A stretch of 64,000 nucleotides of DNA from Rhizobium sp. BK399. GTDB lineage: Bacteria > Pseudomonadota > Alphaproteobacteria > Rhizobiales > Rhizobiaceae. The translations under genes were made by a program, and so were the position numbers. Below, piece after piece: positions 18,709 through 64,000 of this stretch; the stretch's first letter is position 1; each line of letters starts with the position of its first letter. The notes under the pieces are model-generated. The model did no database searches. It saw nothing but the letters and a program-made list of their open reading frames with translations, and was not told the origin of the DNA. The DNA lies in assembly GCF_014194695.1 (NCBI RefSeq), contig NZ_JACIAH010000002.1:124001-188000 (forward strand). Reading direction: 5' to 3'.

Positions 18709-19638
18709 ATGTTTGCAGATACGCAACGCCTTGAAACGGCGAACGCCTCGCTCGGCTTTCATCATGAAGCGGCACAATCCGAGGCACGCGGAATTATCGT
18801 TGTCTCCCATGGGTTGGCCGAGCATTCCAAGCGCTACGCCGGTTTTGCGGCGGCGATGGCGACGCGTGGTTATCATGTCTTTGCCTTCGATCACCGTGGA
18901 CATGGCGAGACGACTGCTGCGGATGCTCCGATCGGACGCTTTGCCCGCCGCGATGGTGTCAGGCAGGTGATCGATGACGTCTCTGCCGTACGCGACCGCG
19001 CTGTGGCACAGTATCCCGGCCTGCCAGTCATCGTTTTCGGGCATTCGATGGGAGGTCTCATCGCGCTGAACGCTGCTGTGACCCATCCCGAGAAATATGA
19101 CGCCGTCGCCGTCTGGAACTCCAATTTTAGCCCAGGCGTCGCAGGGCGGGCAGCACAAGCGATCCTGCTGGCCGAACGGGCCTTGAAGGGCTCCGATGTG
19201 CCAAGCGGCATTTTGCCGAAGCTCACCTTCGGCACTTGGGGAAAGTCCATTGCCAATCGTCGAACGGAGTTCGACTGGTTAAGCCGCGACCCTGTCGAGG
19301 TCGACAAGTATATCGCCGACCCGCTGTGCGGCTTCGATGCCTCCGTTTCCCTCTGGCTCGATATTTTCGAACTGACGTTTCGCGCGCCGCAAACGCCGCA
19401 TCTGGACCGTCTGCCGAAGCAGACACCGATCCATCTTGTTGGTGGCGGGCAGGATCCGGCGACGGATGGCGGAAAAGCGGTGATCTGGCTTTCAAACCAT
19501 TTGAAAGCGCATGGCTTCTCCCGTATCACGACACAGATATATCAGGACATGCGCCACGAAACGCTGAATGAAATTGGAGCGGACGCGGCCATCGCCGCAT
19601 TCGCCGACTGGTGCGACGAAGCGATCGCGAGATCCTGA
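18709..19638 (+). CDS. Alpha/beta hydrolase, monoacylglycerol-lipase/lysophospholipase-like
   Basis: A 309-residue hydrolase-4 type protein. The nucleophile elbow is VFGHSMGGLIAL with Ser113, and the oxyanion/cap entry region reads SHGLAEHSKRY with FDHRGHGETTA. This pattern is typical of PldB/monoglyceride-lipase-like enzymes. Start at ATG 18709, directly after GGAGGATTTG; an in-frame GTG-like start 51 nt upstream is less likely. The stop lies 16 nt before the DMT transporter gene, so it appears to be the first gene of a four-gene operon. Confidence 0.82.
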   Translation: MFADTQRLETANASLGFHHEAAQSEARGIIVVSHGLAEHSKRYAGFAAAMATRGYHVFAFDHRGHGETTAADAPIGRFARRDGVRQVIDDVSAVRDRAVAQYPGLPVIVFGHSMGGLIALNAAVTHPEKYDAVAVWNSNFSPGVAGRAAQAILLAERALKGSDVPSGILPKLTFGTWGKSIANRRTEFDWLSRDPVEVDKYIADPLCGFDASVSLWLDIFELTFRAPQTPHLDRLPKQTPIHLVGGGQDPATDGGKAVIWLSNHLKAHGFSRITTQIYQDMRHETLNEIGADAAIAAFADWCDEAIARS

Positions 19639-58976: not shown

Positions 58977-59052
58977 GGGCCTGTAGCTCAATGGTTAGAG
59001 CCGGCGGCTCATAACCGCTTGGTTGGGGGTTCGAGTCCCTCCGGGCCCACCA
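58977..59052 (+). tRNA. tRNA with CAT anticodon, tRNA-Ile2-like
   Basis: A 76-nt cloverleaf including encoded CCA. The acceptor stem GGGCCTG pairs with CGGGCCC (one G-T), the anticodon stem-loop GGCGG-CTCATAA-CCGCT shows anticodon CAT, and the T loop is TTCGAGT. The D arm and anticodon region (GGTTAGAGC..GGCGGCTCATAACCGCTTGGT) look like tRNA-Ile2, whose C34 is modified to lysidine by TilS, more than elongator tRNA-Met, but the isotype is inferred. Its 3' end abuts an integrase-bearing element. Confidence 0.9.
59010..59052 (+). other. Probable attachment site (left end) in the tRNA 3' half
   Basis: The integrase gene ends 63 nt from the tRNA 3' end. Tyrosine integrases of this kind usually recombine within the anticodon-to-3' end portion and restore the tRNA. 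The matching right-end repeat lies outside the window, so the exact core is unknown. Confidence 0.5.
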
Positions 59053-59115: not shown

Positions 59116-60288
59116 TCATTCAACGGCCCGAAGCCGCCGCACCTGCGCCGAACGGCGAGTCCCGGCCTCGGCGGCGCGGAAAGCCATCGGCTCGGCTTCC
59201 AATTCGTTCAAGTAGATCGTCGTCGTCGTCAGATTTTTGTGGCCCAATGCCTTTTGCAGGGCGAATACGTCAGTCTGGCCATTGCTTGCGCCCTCGGCGA
59301 TCTCGCTCGCGAAAGTCCGGCGCAAGCCGTGCAGCGAAAAGCCCTCGCCTTCAAATCCGGCCTGTGCGGTCCAGATTGCCATCTGGTTCGTCAAGGATTT
59401 CTCGCTGAAAGCCGTGCCGAATGTCGTCTTCAGGATCGAGCCGCCTCGGCTTCGATCAAGCGCGTTCAAGGCTTCCTCCAGTTCAGGCCGGACGACTAGC
59501 ACTATCTTGACGTTGCCGCCATTGCCCTTGTTCTTTTGCGTCTCGAATTCGATCAGCGTGGCGACCTGTATCTCGTCGTTTTCGTCGATGTACCTTTTCG
59601 TCCGCACCTGATCCCATGCGATCCGCGCAATGTCGCCGCGCCGCCCGCAGCCATACCTTGCCAGCGCATAGGCCGTCCGCGCCGGGCTGCCGAGCGCATG
59701 GCGTTTCTCGTAAGCCTGACAAACATGATCAGGCCAGCGCTTTTGCGGCGTGGCCTTCGGCAACCGTGGCCGTTCCAAATCGAGGCCCAAATTGCGGATT
59801 GCCGCGCACTCAGGAAAGGCGTTGATCGCCGCCTTGAACAATTTGCGGATCGCGATTCCGACGCGCTTGGCCTTGTGCGGGCCAAGGCTTTTCAAATGCG
59901 CGCGGAGCAAAGGCAACAGTTCGGCCTCTGACGTGGTGACAGCGGCACCGCTGAATGTCGCGGTCGAATTCGGCACCATGCGAGCATTCAGGAAAATCTC
60001 CGTAAAGCGCCGATGTCCCAGCGTCGTTTGCGGATCAAAAGCCTTCCATTCGTCGCTCCGCTTCCATGCGACAAAGGCGTCGCTGAATGTCGGGGGCTTC
60101 TTTTCGACCTTCTTCTCGGCGGGTGCGTCGACCAGCAGCCTCAATCGTTCGTAGACCTCGGCGAATTCTACCGAGTCGATATCTGGCGGCAGGGTTTTCT
60201 GGCCGACCAGCGGGTGGCGATAGACAAGCTTGCCGCCCTTCAGCTGGTGGACGTTCGCCCATTGCTCGAATCGCTGCTTACGCGCCAT
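59116..60288 (-). CDS. int: Tyrosine recombinase (site-specific integrase)
   Basis: A 390-residue integrase. The N-terminal half (about 1-110) carries an Arm/DUF4102-poor but phage-integrase-like region, and a SAM-like core-binding domain covers about 65-165. The catalytic domain has the box I Arg in RYGCGRRGDI (216/217), box II HGLRR (His320, Arg323), LGHKN (His350) and Tyr359 in TIYLNE, so it looks active. Its 3' end faces the tRNA, the usual arrangement. The start overlaps the XRE-regulator stop by 11 nt, so the two are co-expressed. Confidence 0.93.
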   Translation of the reverse strand: MARKQRFEQWANVHQLKGGKLVYRHPLVGQKTLPPDIDSVEFAEVYERLRLLVDAPAEKKVEKKPPTFSDAFVAWKRSDEWKAFDPQTTLGHRRFTEIFLNARMVPNSTATFSGAAVTTSEAELLPLLRAHLKSLGPHKAKRVGIAIRKLFKAAINAFPECAAIRNLGLDLERPRLPKATPQKRWPDHVCQAYEKRHALGSPARTAYALARYGCGRRGDIARIAWDQVRTKRYIDENDEIQVATLIEFETQKNKGNGGNVKIVLVVRPELEEALNALDRSRGGSILKTTFGTAFSEKSLTNQMAIWTAQAGFEGEGFSLHGLRRTFASEIAEGASNGQTDVFALQKALGHKNLTTTTIYLNELEAEPMAFRAAEAGTRRSAQVRRLRAVE

Positions 60289-60469
60289 GCTCGCCTCCCT
60301 CGATCTTGGTGTTCTCCATGACCAGCCTGAGAAGGCCTTCGTAGCTGAAAGCCCGGCCCTGCTCGATCCCGTTCAACGTCCTTGGGCTCATGTCCAGGTA
60401 CGCCGCCGCGACGGCTACCGAATGCGGCTTGCGCCATTGCTTGAGCTTCTCGCCTAGTGTCATTTCCAT
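60278..60469 (-). CDS. Small XRE-like HTH protein
   Basis: A 63-residue helix-turn-helix protein. The segment SVAVAAAYLDMSPRTLNGIE (about 17-36) fits a Cro/CI-type HTH, and GLLRLVMENTKIEGGE continues the fold. It overlaps the integrase start and is transcribed with it, so it may be an excisionase-like directionality factor or a regulator of integration. It is too short for an effector domain. Confidence 0.65.
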   Translation of the reverse strand: MEMTLGEKLKQWRKPHSVAVAAAYLDMSPRTLNGIEQGRAFSYEGLLRLVMENTKIEGGEHGA

Positions 60470-60712: not shown

Positions 60713-60931
60713 ATGGATGATCGAATCCGCTTCAAAGAGATCGAGGCAAGATACAAGATCAAACGCCCGGAGTTGTCCGTGCTGCAAAAGCACGCCGGTT
60801 ATCCTCGGCCTGCCAAGCGCGGCCCTCATCAAAGCGATCCAGCCGAATATGATCTCGCCATCTGTGATCATTGGGACCGGCGCATCAACGAACTGAAACA
60901 GGAGATCGCGGAGCTAATGGCCTCCGCATGA
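60713..60931 (+). CDS. Small unknown protein of the element
   Basis: A 72-residue hydrophilic protein starting MDDRIRFKEIEARYKIKRPE. The pattern KRPELSVLQKHAGYPRP resembles a degenerate helix-turn-helix with a proline-rich wing, followed by an amphipathic helix (RRINELKQEIAELMAS). It is transcribed divergently from the regulator-integrase pair. It could be an AlpA/excisionase-like factor, but no family is recognised. Confidence 0.5.
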   Translation: MDDRIRFKEIEARYKIKRPELSVLQKHAGYPRPAKRGPHQSDPAEYDLAICDHWDRRINELKQEIAELMASA

Positions 60932-61193
60932 AATGAAACCGCCCGGCTTGCGAGAGCCGAGCGGCGGAAGGACATGGATACCATTAGAAGCCGCTAAAGT
61001 ATAAGTCCTCCGCCTCCCTCCCGCAAGCCGCGCCATTGCCATAAAGGCAACGCGCAATGTCAACGTTATTCGAAGTGCAGGCCTGATATGTCCGCCCGGC
61101 TGGTTTCACCCCACCAGCCGATCACCAAGGCCCGCCCCGGACTCGGGCATTCCCTTTTTGGCAACGCCGCCTCTCCCGATCAGGAGGCGGGCC
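60932..61193. other. Non-coding stretch before the primase-like gene
   Basis: 262 nt with no supported gene. A 37-codon frame (61088-61201) overlaps the next start but has no convincing ribosome site and no recognisable product. Confidence 0.4.
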
Positions 61194-62090
61194 ATGATTG
61201 ATTTCACGACAGCCCGAACCCTCTTGGCCGACCGCGACGAATTCGATTGCGCCTGCCCGGAATGCGGCCCCGGCTGCAAGTCGCCAGCCAATCGCGTCCG
61301 AAAGGTTCTCCGCCTCTGGCCCATTGCCGATGGCATCATTGGCTACCATTGCTGCCGTTGCCCCGTTGAGCAATCCGGCTATGTCCGCGACGGCCATGCC
61401 CCCGCCCTTACCGCCGAGCAAAGGCAGGCGATTGCAAGGCATAGGCGGGAGGCGCAGCGAAGGGCCGAGGCCAAGGCGGAAAGCAAGCGGGAGTTCGTCC
61501 GCAAGCTATGGGGCGAAAGCCGGGATAGCGCCGACAGCGCGTGGGTCGAAAGCTACCTTGGTGGGCGCGGCCTGAGATTGCCCGCCGATACCTATTGGCG
61601 AAAGCGGACGCTCAGATACCATCCCGCCTGCCCATTCCGCGACGATCCGCCCGGCCCGGCATTGCTGGGCGCGTTCACGACGTATCCGCTGACAATCCCG
61701 CGCGATCCTTATGAGGATCCGGAAGTCGAGGCGATCCATCGCATTCGCGGGCGCGGCCATGACAACAAGGCCATGCTTGGCCCGGTCGCCGGAAAGGCGG
61801 TGCAATACGGCAGCTGGGAAACGGCAAGCCGGGCGGTCTTGTCCGTCTGCGAAGGTGTCGAAGACATGATCGCCCTTGTCGCGAAGGGCGTCTTTCCGAT
61901 CTGGGCCATGGGTAGCGCGGGCGCAATCGCCTCGCTGCCGCCCCTGCCGTATCCGAGCAAGCTCGTCGTCTTCGCCGACAATGACGAAACCGGATTGAAT
62001 GCCGCCAGGTGCGCCGCCAGGCGTTGGGCCGAGGCCGGAACGCCAGCGCGGATCAGGTATCGTTCCAGCGGGGACTATGCCGATGGATGA
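61194..62090 (+). CDS. Toprim-domain primase-like protein
   Basis: A 298-residue protein. The N-terminal zinc ribbon reads CACPECGPGCKS (Cys19-28) with HCCRC (52-56). A helical, charged middle (about 75-110) follows. The C-terminal Toprim domain shows LSVCEGVEDMIAL (catalytic Glu) and VVFADNDETGLNAA (the DxD-type metal site). This matches the short phage/plasmid Toprim proteins (DUF7146-like) rather than DnaG, lacking a separate catalytic N-terminal DnaG core. AGGAGG sits 7 nt before the ATG. It overlaps the ATPase gene by 8 nt, suggesting joint priming and unwinding. Confidence 0.82.
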   Translation: MIDFTTARTLLADRDEFDCACPECGPGCKSPANRVRKVLRLWPIADGIIGYHCCRCPVEQSGYVRDGHAPALTAEQRQAIARHRREAQRRAEAKAESKREFVRKLWGESRDSADSAWVESYLGGRGLRLPADTYWRKRTLRYHPACPFRDDPPGPALLGAFTTYPLTIPRDPYEDPEVEAIHRIRGRGHDNKAMLGPVAGKAVQYGSWETASRAVLSVCEGVEDMIALVAKGVFPIWAMGSAGAIASLPPLPYPSKLVVFADNDETGLNAARCAARRWAEAGTPARIRYRSSGDYADG

Positions 62091-63144
62091 CCAGTCCCGC
62101 TCTGAGCATTTCGAGGATTTCGCGGCCCGACCACAGCAGGCGAAGAAGAAGACGGCGGCGGCAGGACCGCCAATGCCAGACACCATTTCCGGTGCCGATC
62201 TGATGGCCGCTACATTCCCGGAGATCGATTTCGTCGTTCCGGGCATCGTCGCACCGGGTGTCACAATGCTGGCCGGGCGACCGAAAATCGGGAAGTCATG
62301 GCTGACCATGGATTGGGGACTGGCCGTCGCCAACGGCGGCTTCGCCCTCGGCAATATCAAGGTCACGCAAGGTGGCGTCCTGTATTTGGGCCTTGAGGAC
62401 AATCGCCGTCGCCTGCAAGCACGGCTCAAGCAGATCGCGCCCGGTCAGGAAATCCCGGCAAATCTGCATTTCGCCTGCGAATGGCCGCGATCCGATCAGG
62501 GCGGGGCCGATCTGATCCGCCGCAAGCTGACCGAGATAGAAAACCCCCGCCTTGTCATCATCGACGTGATCGGCAAGCTCCGCCCGCTTCGCGCGCCGAA
62601 AGACCTCTATCTGGCGGACTACTTGGCAATCGAGCCGATCAAGAAGATTGCCGACGATTACGCCAACCTCGGAATTGTCGTCTGCCACCATGTTTCAAAA
62701 CGTCAGGACGCCGCCGATCCGTTCGATTGCGTATCTGGCTCGACCGGCTTGACCGGAGCTTGCGATACCGTCGCGATCCTCGCCCGCGACACGCAAGGGA
62801 CGACGCTCTACGGGCGGGGCCGCGACGTCGAGGAATTCCATATCGCGCTGTCTTTCGACGCCAGCCACGGCCAGTTCGCCAGCCTTGGTGACGCCGACGA
62901 GGCGCGCCGATCCGAACAGCGGCGGGCGATCCTGAAGGCGCTTGACGAACACGGCCCGATGCGCCCGGCAGACATCGCAAAGGCCACCAGCCTGAAAGCC
63001 GCGAATGTCTACACGCTATTGGCGAACATGGTGAAAAAAGGCGAGATCGAGAAGGACGAGGCCGGAAAATACGGACGATCCAATCGGGAATCCAATCGAG
63101 GAACAAATTCCTACGAAAACGGCAGATGGTCAGTATACCAATGA
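62083..63144 (+). CDS. RepA-like AAA (RecA-fold) ATPase with C-terminal winged helix
   Basis: A 353-residue hexameric-helicase-type ATPase (AAA_25/RepA-like). Walker A is GRPKIGKSW (65-73), Walker B LVIID (157-161), and IVVCHHVSKR a sensor-like strand. The last about 60 residues form a winged helix (RPADIAKATSLKAANVYTLL). Probable role: replicative helicase or initiator of the element. ATG 62083 is chosen; ATG 62077 is 6 nt upstream. Two TCCAATCG repeats of the downstream cluster lie inside its last codons. Confidence 0.83.
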   Translation: MDDQSRSEHFEDFAARPQQAKKKTAAAGPPMPDTISGADLMAATFPEIDFVVPGIVAPGVTMLAGRPKIGKSWLTMDWGLAVANGGFALGNIKVTQGGVLYLGLEDNRRRLQARLKQIAPGQEIPANLHFACEWPRSDQGGADLIRRKLTEIENPRLVIIDVIGKLRPLRAPKDLYLADYLAIEPIKKIADDYANLGIVVCHHVSKRQDAADPFDCVSGSTGLTGACDTVAILARDTQGTTLYGRGRDVEEFHIALSFDASHGQFASLGDADEARRSEQRRAILKALDEHGPMRPADIAKATSLKAANVYTLLANMVKKGEIEKDEAGKYGRSNRESNRGTNSYENGRWSVYQ

Positions 63145-63332
63145 TTTCAGAGGCTTAAGCTGTCTTCGAATTATGTCTCGCACACACAAGGGTATTTGAT
63201 CGATTGGATTTGTATCAATAGGAGGAAAATAGGCAATGAAAACAGATAGATAAGATCCATCGATTTTAGGGGTGGTCCGATTGGATCGATTGGATTTTGC
63301 CGGAATCCAATTCGATCCAATCGATCCAATCG
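63079..63332. repeat. Iteron-like repeat cluster, possible origin
   Basis: Seven exact copies of TCCAATCG or its complement lie at 63079, 63091, 63201, 63278, 63287, 63316 and 63325, plus one imperfect copy near 63305. The last four form a perfect 19-bp inverted repeat CCGATTGGATCGATTGGAT (63277-63295 / 63315-63333) with a 19-nt loop. The region between is AT-rich. This layout is like iterons beside a Rep protein. Confidence 0.72.
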
Positions 63333-63358
63333 GTACTTGGTAGGAAGGGATTGAAAAA

Positions 63359-63733
63359 ATGGCGACGAGAAAGCGTCCGGTTGCAAAGCTTCCGAAGGAG
63401 ATCAGGCGCCTCTTGCGGGGCCTCAAGGACTATACGCTGGTGGTCGGGCCGATAGTCTGGCAGCCGATCGATGACGGCGGGCGGGCCTACTACTTCATGG
63501 TTTCAGGCTGTGACCGGGCCGAGGGGTTCTGGTCCGTGTCCGTTCATATCGGGCGCGAGCATGACGAAAAGATGCAGGCCGCGTTTCTAGCGATGGTCAT
63601 AAAGCCGGGTCGTCTGATCCAGCTTTTCGACGACGAATTGGACGCGGTTTCCTGCTGCGATCAGCTTTGGCATTGCGCCAAGATGCAATCCATCAAGGCC
63701 CACCTGAAAGCCGAGCGCCAAGCCAACCCATGA
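63359..63733 (+). CDS. Unknown protein of the element
   Basis: A 124-residue soluble protein, basic at the N-terminus (RKRPVAKLPKEIRRLLRGL) with a mixed alpha/beta core. No family is recognised. It directly follows the repeat cluster and precedes the last gene by 13 nt, suggesting a shared transcript started near the cluster. AAGG lies upstream of the ATG. Confidence 0.55.
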   Translation: MATRKRPVAKLPKEIRRLLRGLKDYTLVVGPIVWQPIDDGGRAYYFMVSGCDRAEGFWSVSVHIGREHDEKMQAAFLAMVIKPGRLIQLFDDELDAVSCCDQLWHCAKMQSIKAHLKAERQANP

Positions 63734-63746
63734 GGAGGAAACCGCC

Positions 63747-64000
63747 ATGCCGAAAGCTAAGCCTAGAACGCCGCCGTCAATGTCTGCCAGGCAGGCCGCG
63801 CCGACGCCGATACAGCAGGACGACGCAGCCACCCGGAAACTGATCCGGGAGCTTGAGGAGGACACCGAGGAATATCTTGACGAGGCGCGGCTCCGCATGC
63901 GGCGGGAGGTCGGCCAGCTACTGGACGCCATGGCAGATATCCGGGATCTCTTGCGCCGGGTGCCGCCCCGGACGGCGGAGGCGTTGGAGCGGCTGGCCGA
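63747..64000 (+). CDS. Partial unknown protein, acidic coiled-coil region
   Basis: Open from ATG 63747 to the window edge (84 codons seen). GAGGAGG precedes the start. After a Pro/Ala/Gln-rich N-terminus (about 1-25) it has a strongly charged helical stretch (KLIRELEEDTEEYLDEARLR) typical of a coiled coil. Only a fragment is visible, so no function is suggested. Confidence 0.6.
   Translation, partial: MPKAKPRTPPSMSARQAAPTPIQQDDAATRKLIRELEEDTEEYLDEARLRMRREVGQLLDAMADIRDLLRRVPPRTAEALERLA

What the first reader, a model, noticed from the sequence alone, without database searches (positions are those of the whole stretch)
63079..63332. Seven-copy TCCAATCG cluster with a 19-bp perfect inverted repeat
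Repeats start in the last codons of a RepA-like ATPase gene and end just before the next gene. This looks like an iteron origin or partition/repressor site for the element, and it is not explained by any gene.
Basis: seen in the sequence. Interest (0 to 1): 0.75.

Follow-up and report, generated by a model that had tools for sequence, protein, structure and literature searches.

The report
Helicase gene carrying its own origin
Seven copies of one nine-letter DNA word, two of them inside the last codons of a helicase-like gene of an integrated bacterial element, are likely the start site of the element's replication, predicted to be read by that protein's own winged helix, and related elements carry similar clusters whose words change in step with residues of that helix.

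Summary
In detail: all 7 TCCAATCG copies of the window lie at 63079-63332. The unit is ATCCAATCG; the 19-bp inverted repeat is two tandem doublets facing each other. It is the window's strongest repeat cluster.

It begins where the winged helix of a RepA/DnaB-fold ATPase ends, in an 11.8-kb element at a tRNA-Met gene (integrase, primase, capsid protein, PifA-like cargo).

Of 162 non-redundant homologous loci (window included), 101 have a repeat cluster (z>=4) behind the winged helix; controls 8/169, 3/152, 1/162. Words differ between elements, run in 9-bp steps, and mostly form arrays in opposite orientation. Plasmid pATHE01 shows it as (SIH)6. Word and winged helix covary: in 36 loci base 3 is best predicted by residue 311 and base 7 by residue 310, neighbours on the recognition helix; the second link weakens under the strictest thinning.

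Best reading: an iteron origin read by the helicase's own winged helix, working like SaPI/PICI Rep-ori but on another helicase fold. Binding and replication are untested.

The parts
58977..59052 (+). tRNA-Met gene, integration target
   Evidence: ARAGORN
59037..59052 (+). left attachment repeat, 16 bp; second copy at C2:194859-194874, outside the window, which makes the element about 11.8 kb
   Evidence: exact direct repeat, seen in the sequence
59116..60288 (-). tyrosine integrase
   Evidence: PF00589 E 3.3e-9; phrog_1 E 1.3e-19
60278..60469 (-). small HTH regulator, weak call
   Evidence: HTH_31 E 0.0013, below Pfam cut-off
60713..60931 (+). 72-aa ORF, no family
61158..62090 (+). Toprim primase (an internal ATG lies at 61194)
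   Evidence: Toprim_3 E 6.4e-9, DUF7146 E 7.3e-9; phrog_510 DNA primase E 1.2e-12
62083..63144 (+). RepA/DnaB-fold ATPase with C-terminal winged helix; predicted initiator-helicase
62914..63078 (+). codons of the winged helix, residues 278-332; recognition helix 306-318 with Y310 and T311
   Evidence: helix position
63078..63086 (+). iteron 1, ATCCAATCG, inside the ATPase codons
63090..63098 (+). iteron 2, inside the ATPase codons, 12 bp from iteron 1
63099..63277 (.). AT-rich core between the iteron groups (contains iteron 3); candidate unwinding region, inferred
   Evidence: GC about 0.38-0.42; 100-bp GC minimum of 0.35
63201..63209 (-). iteron 3
63278..63286 (-). iteron 4
63287..63295 (-). 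iteron 5, 9 bp from iteron 4
63315..63323 (+). iteron 6
63324..63332 (+). iteron 7, 9 bp from iteron 6
63277..63333 (.). 19-bp perfect inverted repeat made of iterons 4-5 and 6-7
63359..63733 (+). 124-aa ORF, no family
63747..64000 (+). 88-aa ORF, runs past the window end (C2:187747-188013)

Best explanation
The seven ATCCAATCG copies at 63078-63332 are most likely the replication origin of an integrated 11.8-kb element, predicted to be bound by the winged helix of the RepA/DnaB-fold ATPase whose last codons contain the first two copies. Shown by calls: position, copy number and orientation; homologous ATPases with a cluster in the same place but a different word; 9-bp steps; covariation between word and recognition helix. 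Inferred: after excision the ATPase binds the iteron arrays through its winged helix, assembles as a ring on the AT-rich core between them, unwinds it, and the neighbouring Toprim primase starts synthesis. That would be a self-loading helicase-initiator, functionally like SaPI Rep at its ori. Because the word changes with the helix, each element would fire only its own origin.
For: Cluster far above chance. In 162 non-redundant loci (window included) 101 have z>=4 in the 500 bp behind the winged helix, against 8/169 gene body, 3/152 further downstream, 1/162 upstream. In 68 non-redundant loci with z>=8, 51 have same-orientation copies exactly 9 bp apart (156 pairs at 9 bp, 35 at 8), also where both copies lie after the stop codon (62 at 9, 25 at 8), so the step is not only a reading-frame effect; where there are two or more tandem arrays, first and last face opposite ways in 37 of 44, p 5e-6. 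Word similarity follows winged-helix similarity after correction for the ATPase core (n=60, partial r 0.264, p 0.0005). With bases 3 and 7 of the word hidden while the register was set, residue 311 carries most information on base 3 (excess 1.02 bits, next position 0.45) and residue 310 on base 7 (0.62, next 0.43) among residues 40-332 with few gaps, in 36 loci; R/K-G, Q/T-A, F/Y-C holds in 31 of 34. Residue 311 stays first at AAA identity cut-offs 0.85, 0.70 and 0.60. Circular plasmid pATHE01 has six tandem 9-bp copies directly behind the winged helix, its highest-scoring repeat window. Fold: DnaB and RSF1010 RepA.
Against: No binding, excision or replication data. 61 of 162 non-redundant loci fall below z 4, among them close relatives such as L054 (48% identity; z 0.7). 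At the strictest thinning (21 loci) residue 310 ranks only third for base 7. The window itself scores 4 of 6 in the register and is not among the 36 loci; its T311-A pairing is matched by one other locus (L271), and the rule falls to 38 of 47 when weaker registers are admitted. The rule was read off the same data it was counted on. The AT-rich dip is not specific: 51 of 61 loci without a cluster also have lower GC there, against 90 of 101 with one. No consistent GC-skew switch at the clusters. The first two copies in the window are 12 bp apart, not 9.
Confidence: 0.77

Rival explanations
1. Partition, incompatibility or operator site: the repeats bind an element protein to segregate the element or to control the genes downstream, and replication starts elsewhere.
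For: The cluster lies upstream of ORF 63359; tandem and inverted short repeats are also typical of centromeres and operators (established knowledge). Iterons in plasmids can also serve copy control.
Against: The clusters follow the ATPase, not the downstream gene: tblastn found neither the 124-aa nor the 88-aa ORF in 20 larger loci, 15 of which have a cluster at p<=0.01. The word covaries with the ATPase's own winged helix. No exact copy lies elsewhere in the window, so none at the operon promoter. No sigma-70-like promoter at the cluster (0 found, 0.5 expected).
Confidence: 0.12
2. RNA hairpin: the 19-bp inverted repeat works as a hairpin in the mRNA, a terminator or translation switch for ORF 63359.
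For: Folds at -39.3 kcal/mol, z -2.70, 0 of 200 shuffles as stable.
Against: Only four of the seven copies take part, and any two inverted doublets would fold. In relatives the tandem arrays are usually tens of bases to about 200 bp apart. The terminator scan gives one site, as many as expected by chance.
Confidence: 0.04
3. Former origin: the ATPase still resembles an initiator but the element is a relic or is replicated only by the chromosome or a helper phage, so the cluster is not active.
For: Only one capsid gene and no terminase or portal were recognised among the element's ORFs that were searched; no copy-number data.
Against: Integrase, primase and ATPase frames are open, both 16-bp attachment repeats are identical, all seven iterons are exact. 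Relatives are found in 117 stretches of viral contigs.
Confidence: 0.07

Closest known systems
SaPI / PICI Rep-ori module (PMC6092414, passages and one section seen; PMC7581432, passages seen)
   Same: Origin immediately 3' of the helicase-initiator gene; short iterons in two sets around an AT-rich region; helicase reads the iterons with its C-terminal domain; primase next door; tyrosine integrase and att sites.
   Different: PICI Rep helicases are DUF927- or D5/Primase_Cterm-type (PMC7581432); this ATPase has the RecA-type fold of DnaB/RSF1010 RepA. 9-bp iterons in strict steps, often written into the gene's last codons; Toprim primase.
RSF1010 RepA hexameric helicase
   Different: RSF1010 uses a separate iteron-binding protein, RepC, and an oriV elsewhere (recalled); here a winged helix is fused to the ATPase and the iterons lie behind it.
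Iteron plasmids with Rep/TrfA/RepE-type initiators (PMC4980987, search listing only; spacing recalled)
   Same: Repeated initiator sites beside an AT-rich stretch.
   Different: Those iterons are about 20 bp and in direct orientation (recalled); here 9-bp steps and arrays in opposite orientation; the initiator is itself helicase-like.
Caldicellulosiruptor bescii plasmid pATHE01 (NC_012036)
   Same: Homologous ATPase (32% identity), winged helix followed by six 9-bp iterons in frame as (SIH)6, then copies in the opposite orientation.
   Different: Autonomous plasmid in Bacillota; a longer 718-aa protein whose N-terminal part is not homologous to the window ATPase; all copies inside the gene.

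Membership tests
SaPI/PICI Rep-ori replicon | origin region directly 3' of the initiator gene | tested here: met
   cluster 63078-63332 starts in the last ATPase codons; same place in 101 of 162 non-redundant loci
[quoted passage not shown]
   iterons 1-2 and 4-7 around a GC-poor core; the GC dip itself is not specific to loci with iterons
SaPI/PICI Rep-ori replicon | Rep helicase of the DUF927 or D5/Primase_Cterm families | tested here: not met
   AAA_25, RecA-type fold like DnaB/RepA
SaPI/PICI Rep-ori replicon | autonomous replication and phage-dependent induction | not testable with these tools
   needs cells and phage
RSF1010-type RepA helicase | RecA-fold hexameric helicase core | tested here: met
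RSF1010-type RepA helicase | separate iteron-binding initiator protein (RepC) | tested here: inconclusive
   the family scans of element ORFs named no such protein, but several small ORFs have no family
Iteron plasmid (about 20-bp iterons) | iteron period of about 20 bp | tested here: not met
   9-bp step: 156 same-orientation pairs at 9 bp in 68 loci; the 20-bp figure is recalled
Capsid-encoding phage satellite | integrase and att repeats at a tRNA gene | tested here: met
Capsid-encoding phage satellite | own major capsid protein | tested here: met
   L010:10511-11764, phrog_617 E 4.1e-24, PF05065 E 1.1e-5
Capsid-encoding phage satellite | packaging in a helper-dependent particle | not testable with these tools
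   no terminase or portal recognised in the ORFs searched; needs experiment

The most novel reading that the evidence does not exclude
A widespread class of self-loading replicative helicases of the DnaB/RepA (RecA-fold) type carries its own origin reader: a fused winged helix that reads 9-bp iterons written partly into the last codons of the helicase gene itself. Two neighbouring residues of the recognition helix set two bases of the iteron (R/K-G, Q/T-A, F/Y-C at base 3; R/K or not at base 7), so each satellite, integrative element or plasmid has a private origin password. This would be a RecA-fold counterpart of the SaPI Rep-ori system.
Probability: 0.6. Interest if true: 0.76.

Novelty: new variant of a known kind. 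Interest (0 to 1): 0.62.

Why it matters
If true, it adds a second helicase fold to the small set of helicases thought to find and open their own origin, and it gives an origin-finding rule (look behind the winged helix of AAA_25 ATPases) for satellites, integrative elements and plasmids whose origin is unknown. The covariation between two helix residues and two bases turns origin specificity into something that can be read and tested from sequence. It also suggests why related elements could share one cell: different words.

Tried and rejected
GC-skew switch as an origin mark: in the window the skew rises behind the cluster, but over 94 non-redundant loci with clusters there is no consistent change (45 of 94 positive, p 0.089 at 1 kb; likewise at 2 and 3 kb). 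AT-rich dip as proof of an unwinding region: present, but also in most loci without clusters. RNA hairpin and terminator: see rivals. Operator for the downstream ORF. A DnaA-box check was written but the script stopped on a file error before it, and it was not repeated.

Single-sequence scans of genome contigs and viral contigs found no relative; the alignment A1 found 183 and 117 candidate stretches, of which the best 80 each were kept and used. Phage and plasmid records gave 13 and 9 records; 12 of these were fetched.

The three sibling elements with a related capsid gene or integrase but another helicase-like gene (L128, L129, L132) showed no comparable cluster behind that gene, except four exact GGCGGGCCA copies over about 130 bp in L129, not tested for significance.

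Structure comparison: the listed rows cover model residues 32-276 and barely test the winged helix; it rests on Pfam and the confident model.

Literature: nine answered full-text searches listed no paper that I recognised as describing iterons behind AAA_25/winged-helix ATPases. The library holds open-access papers only, so this is not proof of absence from print. The original paper on the C. bescii plasmids is recalled, not seen.

Rows dropped before counts: of 217 loci, 8 whose match did not reach the winged helix; then 40 of 209 as more than 85% identical; 7 of the remaining 169 lack a full 3' region. L016-L038 (weak hits) and L053 (fragment) were not used. The register test used 36 of 106 non-redundant rows with z>=4 (register score at least 5 of 6, unambiguous). 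In one search the 22 intervals were chosen by me.

Full report
WHAT IS THERE. The seven TCCAATCG copies are all the exact copies in the 64-kb window and they lie at 63079-63332. All carry a 5' A, so the unit is ATCCAATCG: + at 63078 and 63090, - at 63201, 63278 and 63287, + at 63315 and 63324. The 19-bp perfect inverted repeat (63277-63295 / 63315-63333) is the two tandem doublets facing each other. The window's repeat score peaks here at 83; the next place scores 16 in 2,548 overlapping windows. In the 6.43-Mb genome there are 67 copies of ATCCAATCG, these 7 in one place.

WHERE IT IS. A 16-bp direct repeat of the 3' end of tRNA-Met (59037-59052) recurs at C2:194859, giving an element of about 11.8 kb. 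It holds an integrase, a small HTH protein, a Toprim primase, an AAA_25 ATPase with a C-terminal winged helix, the cluster, two small ORFs, a Schlafen AlbA_2 protein, a KAP ATPase that matches PADLOC's PifA model at 5e-109, and an HK97-type capsid protein. The host genus is likely Rhizobium: G071, same genus as the window's genome, has a contig of the same length and match position as Rhizobium sp. CCGE 510.

CONSERVED POSITION, CHANGING WORD. In a first set of 45 loci, 27 had a significant repeat cluster (p<=0.01) around the 3' end of the ATPase gene; controls 2/45 (gene body), 3/43 (further downstream), 2/40 (upstream). So 61 of 162 have no clear cluster. The words differ: CGGTAACAA, CGATAACA, CGCTAACA, CCAATCTTA, GTCCCAACC and others.

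SHARED ANATOMY. In the 68 non-redundant loci with z>=8, 51 have same-direction copies exactly 9 bp apart; 156 pairs at 9 bp, 35 at 8, 23 at 18, 17 at 12. Counting only copies behind the stop codon, 62 at 9 and 25 at 8, so the step is not only due to reading frame. Sites lie wholly in codons in 24 loci, wholly behind the stop in 26, on both sides in 18. With two or more tandem arrays, first and last point opposite ways in 37 of 44 (p 5e-6). In codons the copies become tripeptide repeats, for example VGT in L064 and SIH in pATHE01. GC is lower behind the winged helix in 90 of 101 loci with clusters, but also in 51 of 61 without.

A PLASMID WITH THE SAME LAYOUT. C. bescii pATHE01 (NC_012036, 8,291 bp, circular) has a homologous ATPase, the only one of its 7 annotated genes whose name suggests replication. 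Directly behind its winged helix come six tandem ATTCACTCT, then single copies and three GAGTGAA in the opposite direction; this is the plasmid's highest-scoring repeat window (173 against a median of 10). That these are its origin is inferred.

THE WINGED HELIX READS THE WORD (statistical evidence). Word similarity tracks winged-helix identity beyond core identity: n=60, partial r 0.264, p 0.0005; the reverse (core given winged helix) is 0.111, p 0.002. For a sharper test, each word was placed in the frame CGNTAANA without using bases 3 and 7. Over residues 40-332 with at most 20% gaps, base 3 is best predicted by residue 311 (excess information 1.02 bits, next 0.45 at 307) and base 7 by residue 310 (0.62, next 0.43 at 307), in 36 non-redundant loci. 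R/K-G, Q/T-A, F/Y-C holds in 17 of 18 (register score 6), 31 of 34 (5 or more) and 38 of 47 (4 or more), permutation p 5e-5. Keeping only loci whose cores differ by 15, 30 or 40%, residue 311 stays first; residue 310 stays first at 15 and 30% but is third at 40% (21 loci). The rule was read from the same data, so an independent set is still needed. The window (Y310, T311; CGATTGG) has a weaker register and is not among the 36; its T311-A pairing is shared with L271 only.

MECHANISM. Shown: anatomy, conservation, covariation. Inferred: the ATPase binds its arrays, forms a ring at the AT-rich core, opens it, and the Toprim primase starts synthesis. [quoted passage not shown] no other known bacterial replicon' (PMC6092414, passages). 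The present family has that organisation on another helicase fold, which would widen that statement. PLE of Vibrio cholerae also uses iterons but with a RepA_N initiator not predicted to be a helicase (PMC7145576, passages); plasmid pRN1 needs a stem-loop downstream of its replication gene (PMC4234260, abstract).

WHAT IT IS NOT SHOWN TO BE. No binding, excision or copy-number data exist here. The element fails the PICI helicase criterion, so it is not filed as a PICI; it works like one. Relatives occur widely in short viral contigs: 57 of the 80 kept IMG/VR contigs are at most 20 kb (my count).

Noticed in passing
L010:10511-11764 (C2:192511-193764); L086, L128, L129, L130, L131, L132: The element carries a lone HK97-type capsid protein. 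Nine of 148 genomes of the genus (own included) have a relative; elements at tRNA-Glu (L128) and tRNA-Leu (L129) and L132 combine related capsid with related integrase or primase but other helicase-like genes, so the replication module seems to be swapped.
   Followed up: partly
L086 (G151): Relative with capsid, HNH nuclease, small terminase and a short tape-measure-like protein beside the ATPase and iterons; L132 also encodes a tape-measure-looking 827-aa ORF (by eye). A satellite with its own capsid and tape measure would be unusual.
   Followed up: partly
L010:6123-9646 (C2:188123-191646): Schlafen AlbA_2 protein and a KAP ATPase matching PADLOC PifA (5e-109) sit between the replication and capsid parts, likely anti-phage cargo; L128 has a distant KAP-like ORF.
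   Followed up: no
L106 and L111: Homologous ATPases with 9-bp repeats lie in a Streptococcus suis phage-like record and a Subdoligranulum plasmid record beside tetracycline-resistance genes, so the same kind of origin may serve resistance-carrying elements.
   Followed up: no
   Followed up: no
window 19263-19350: ARAGORN reports a tRNA-Asp of 88 bases, long for tRNA-Asp; possibly a variable-loop or prediction oddity.
   Followed up: no
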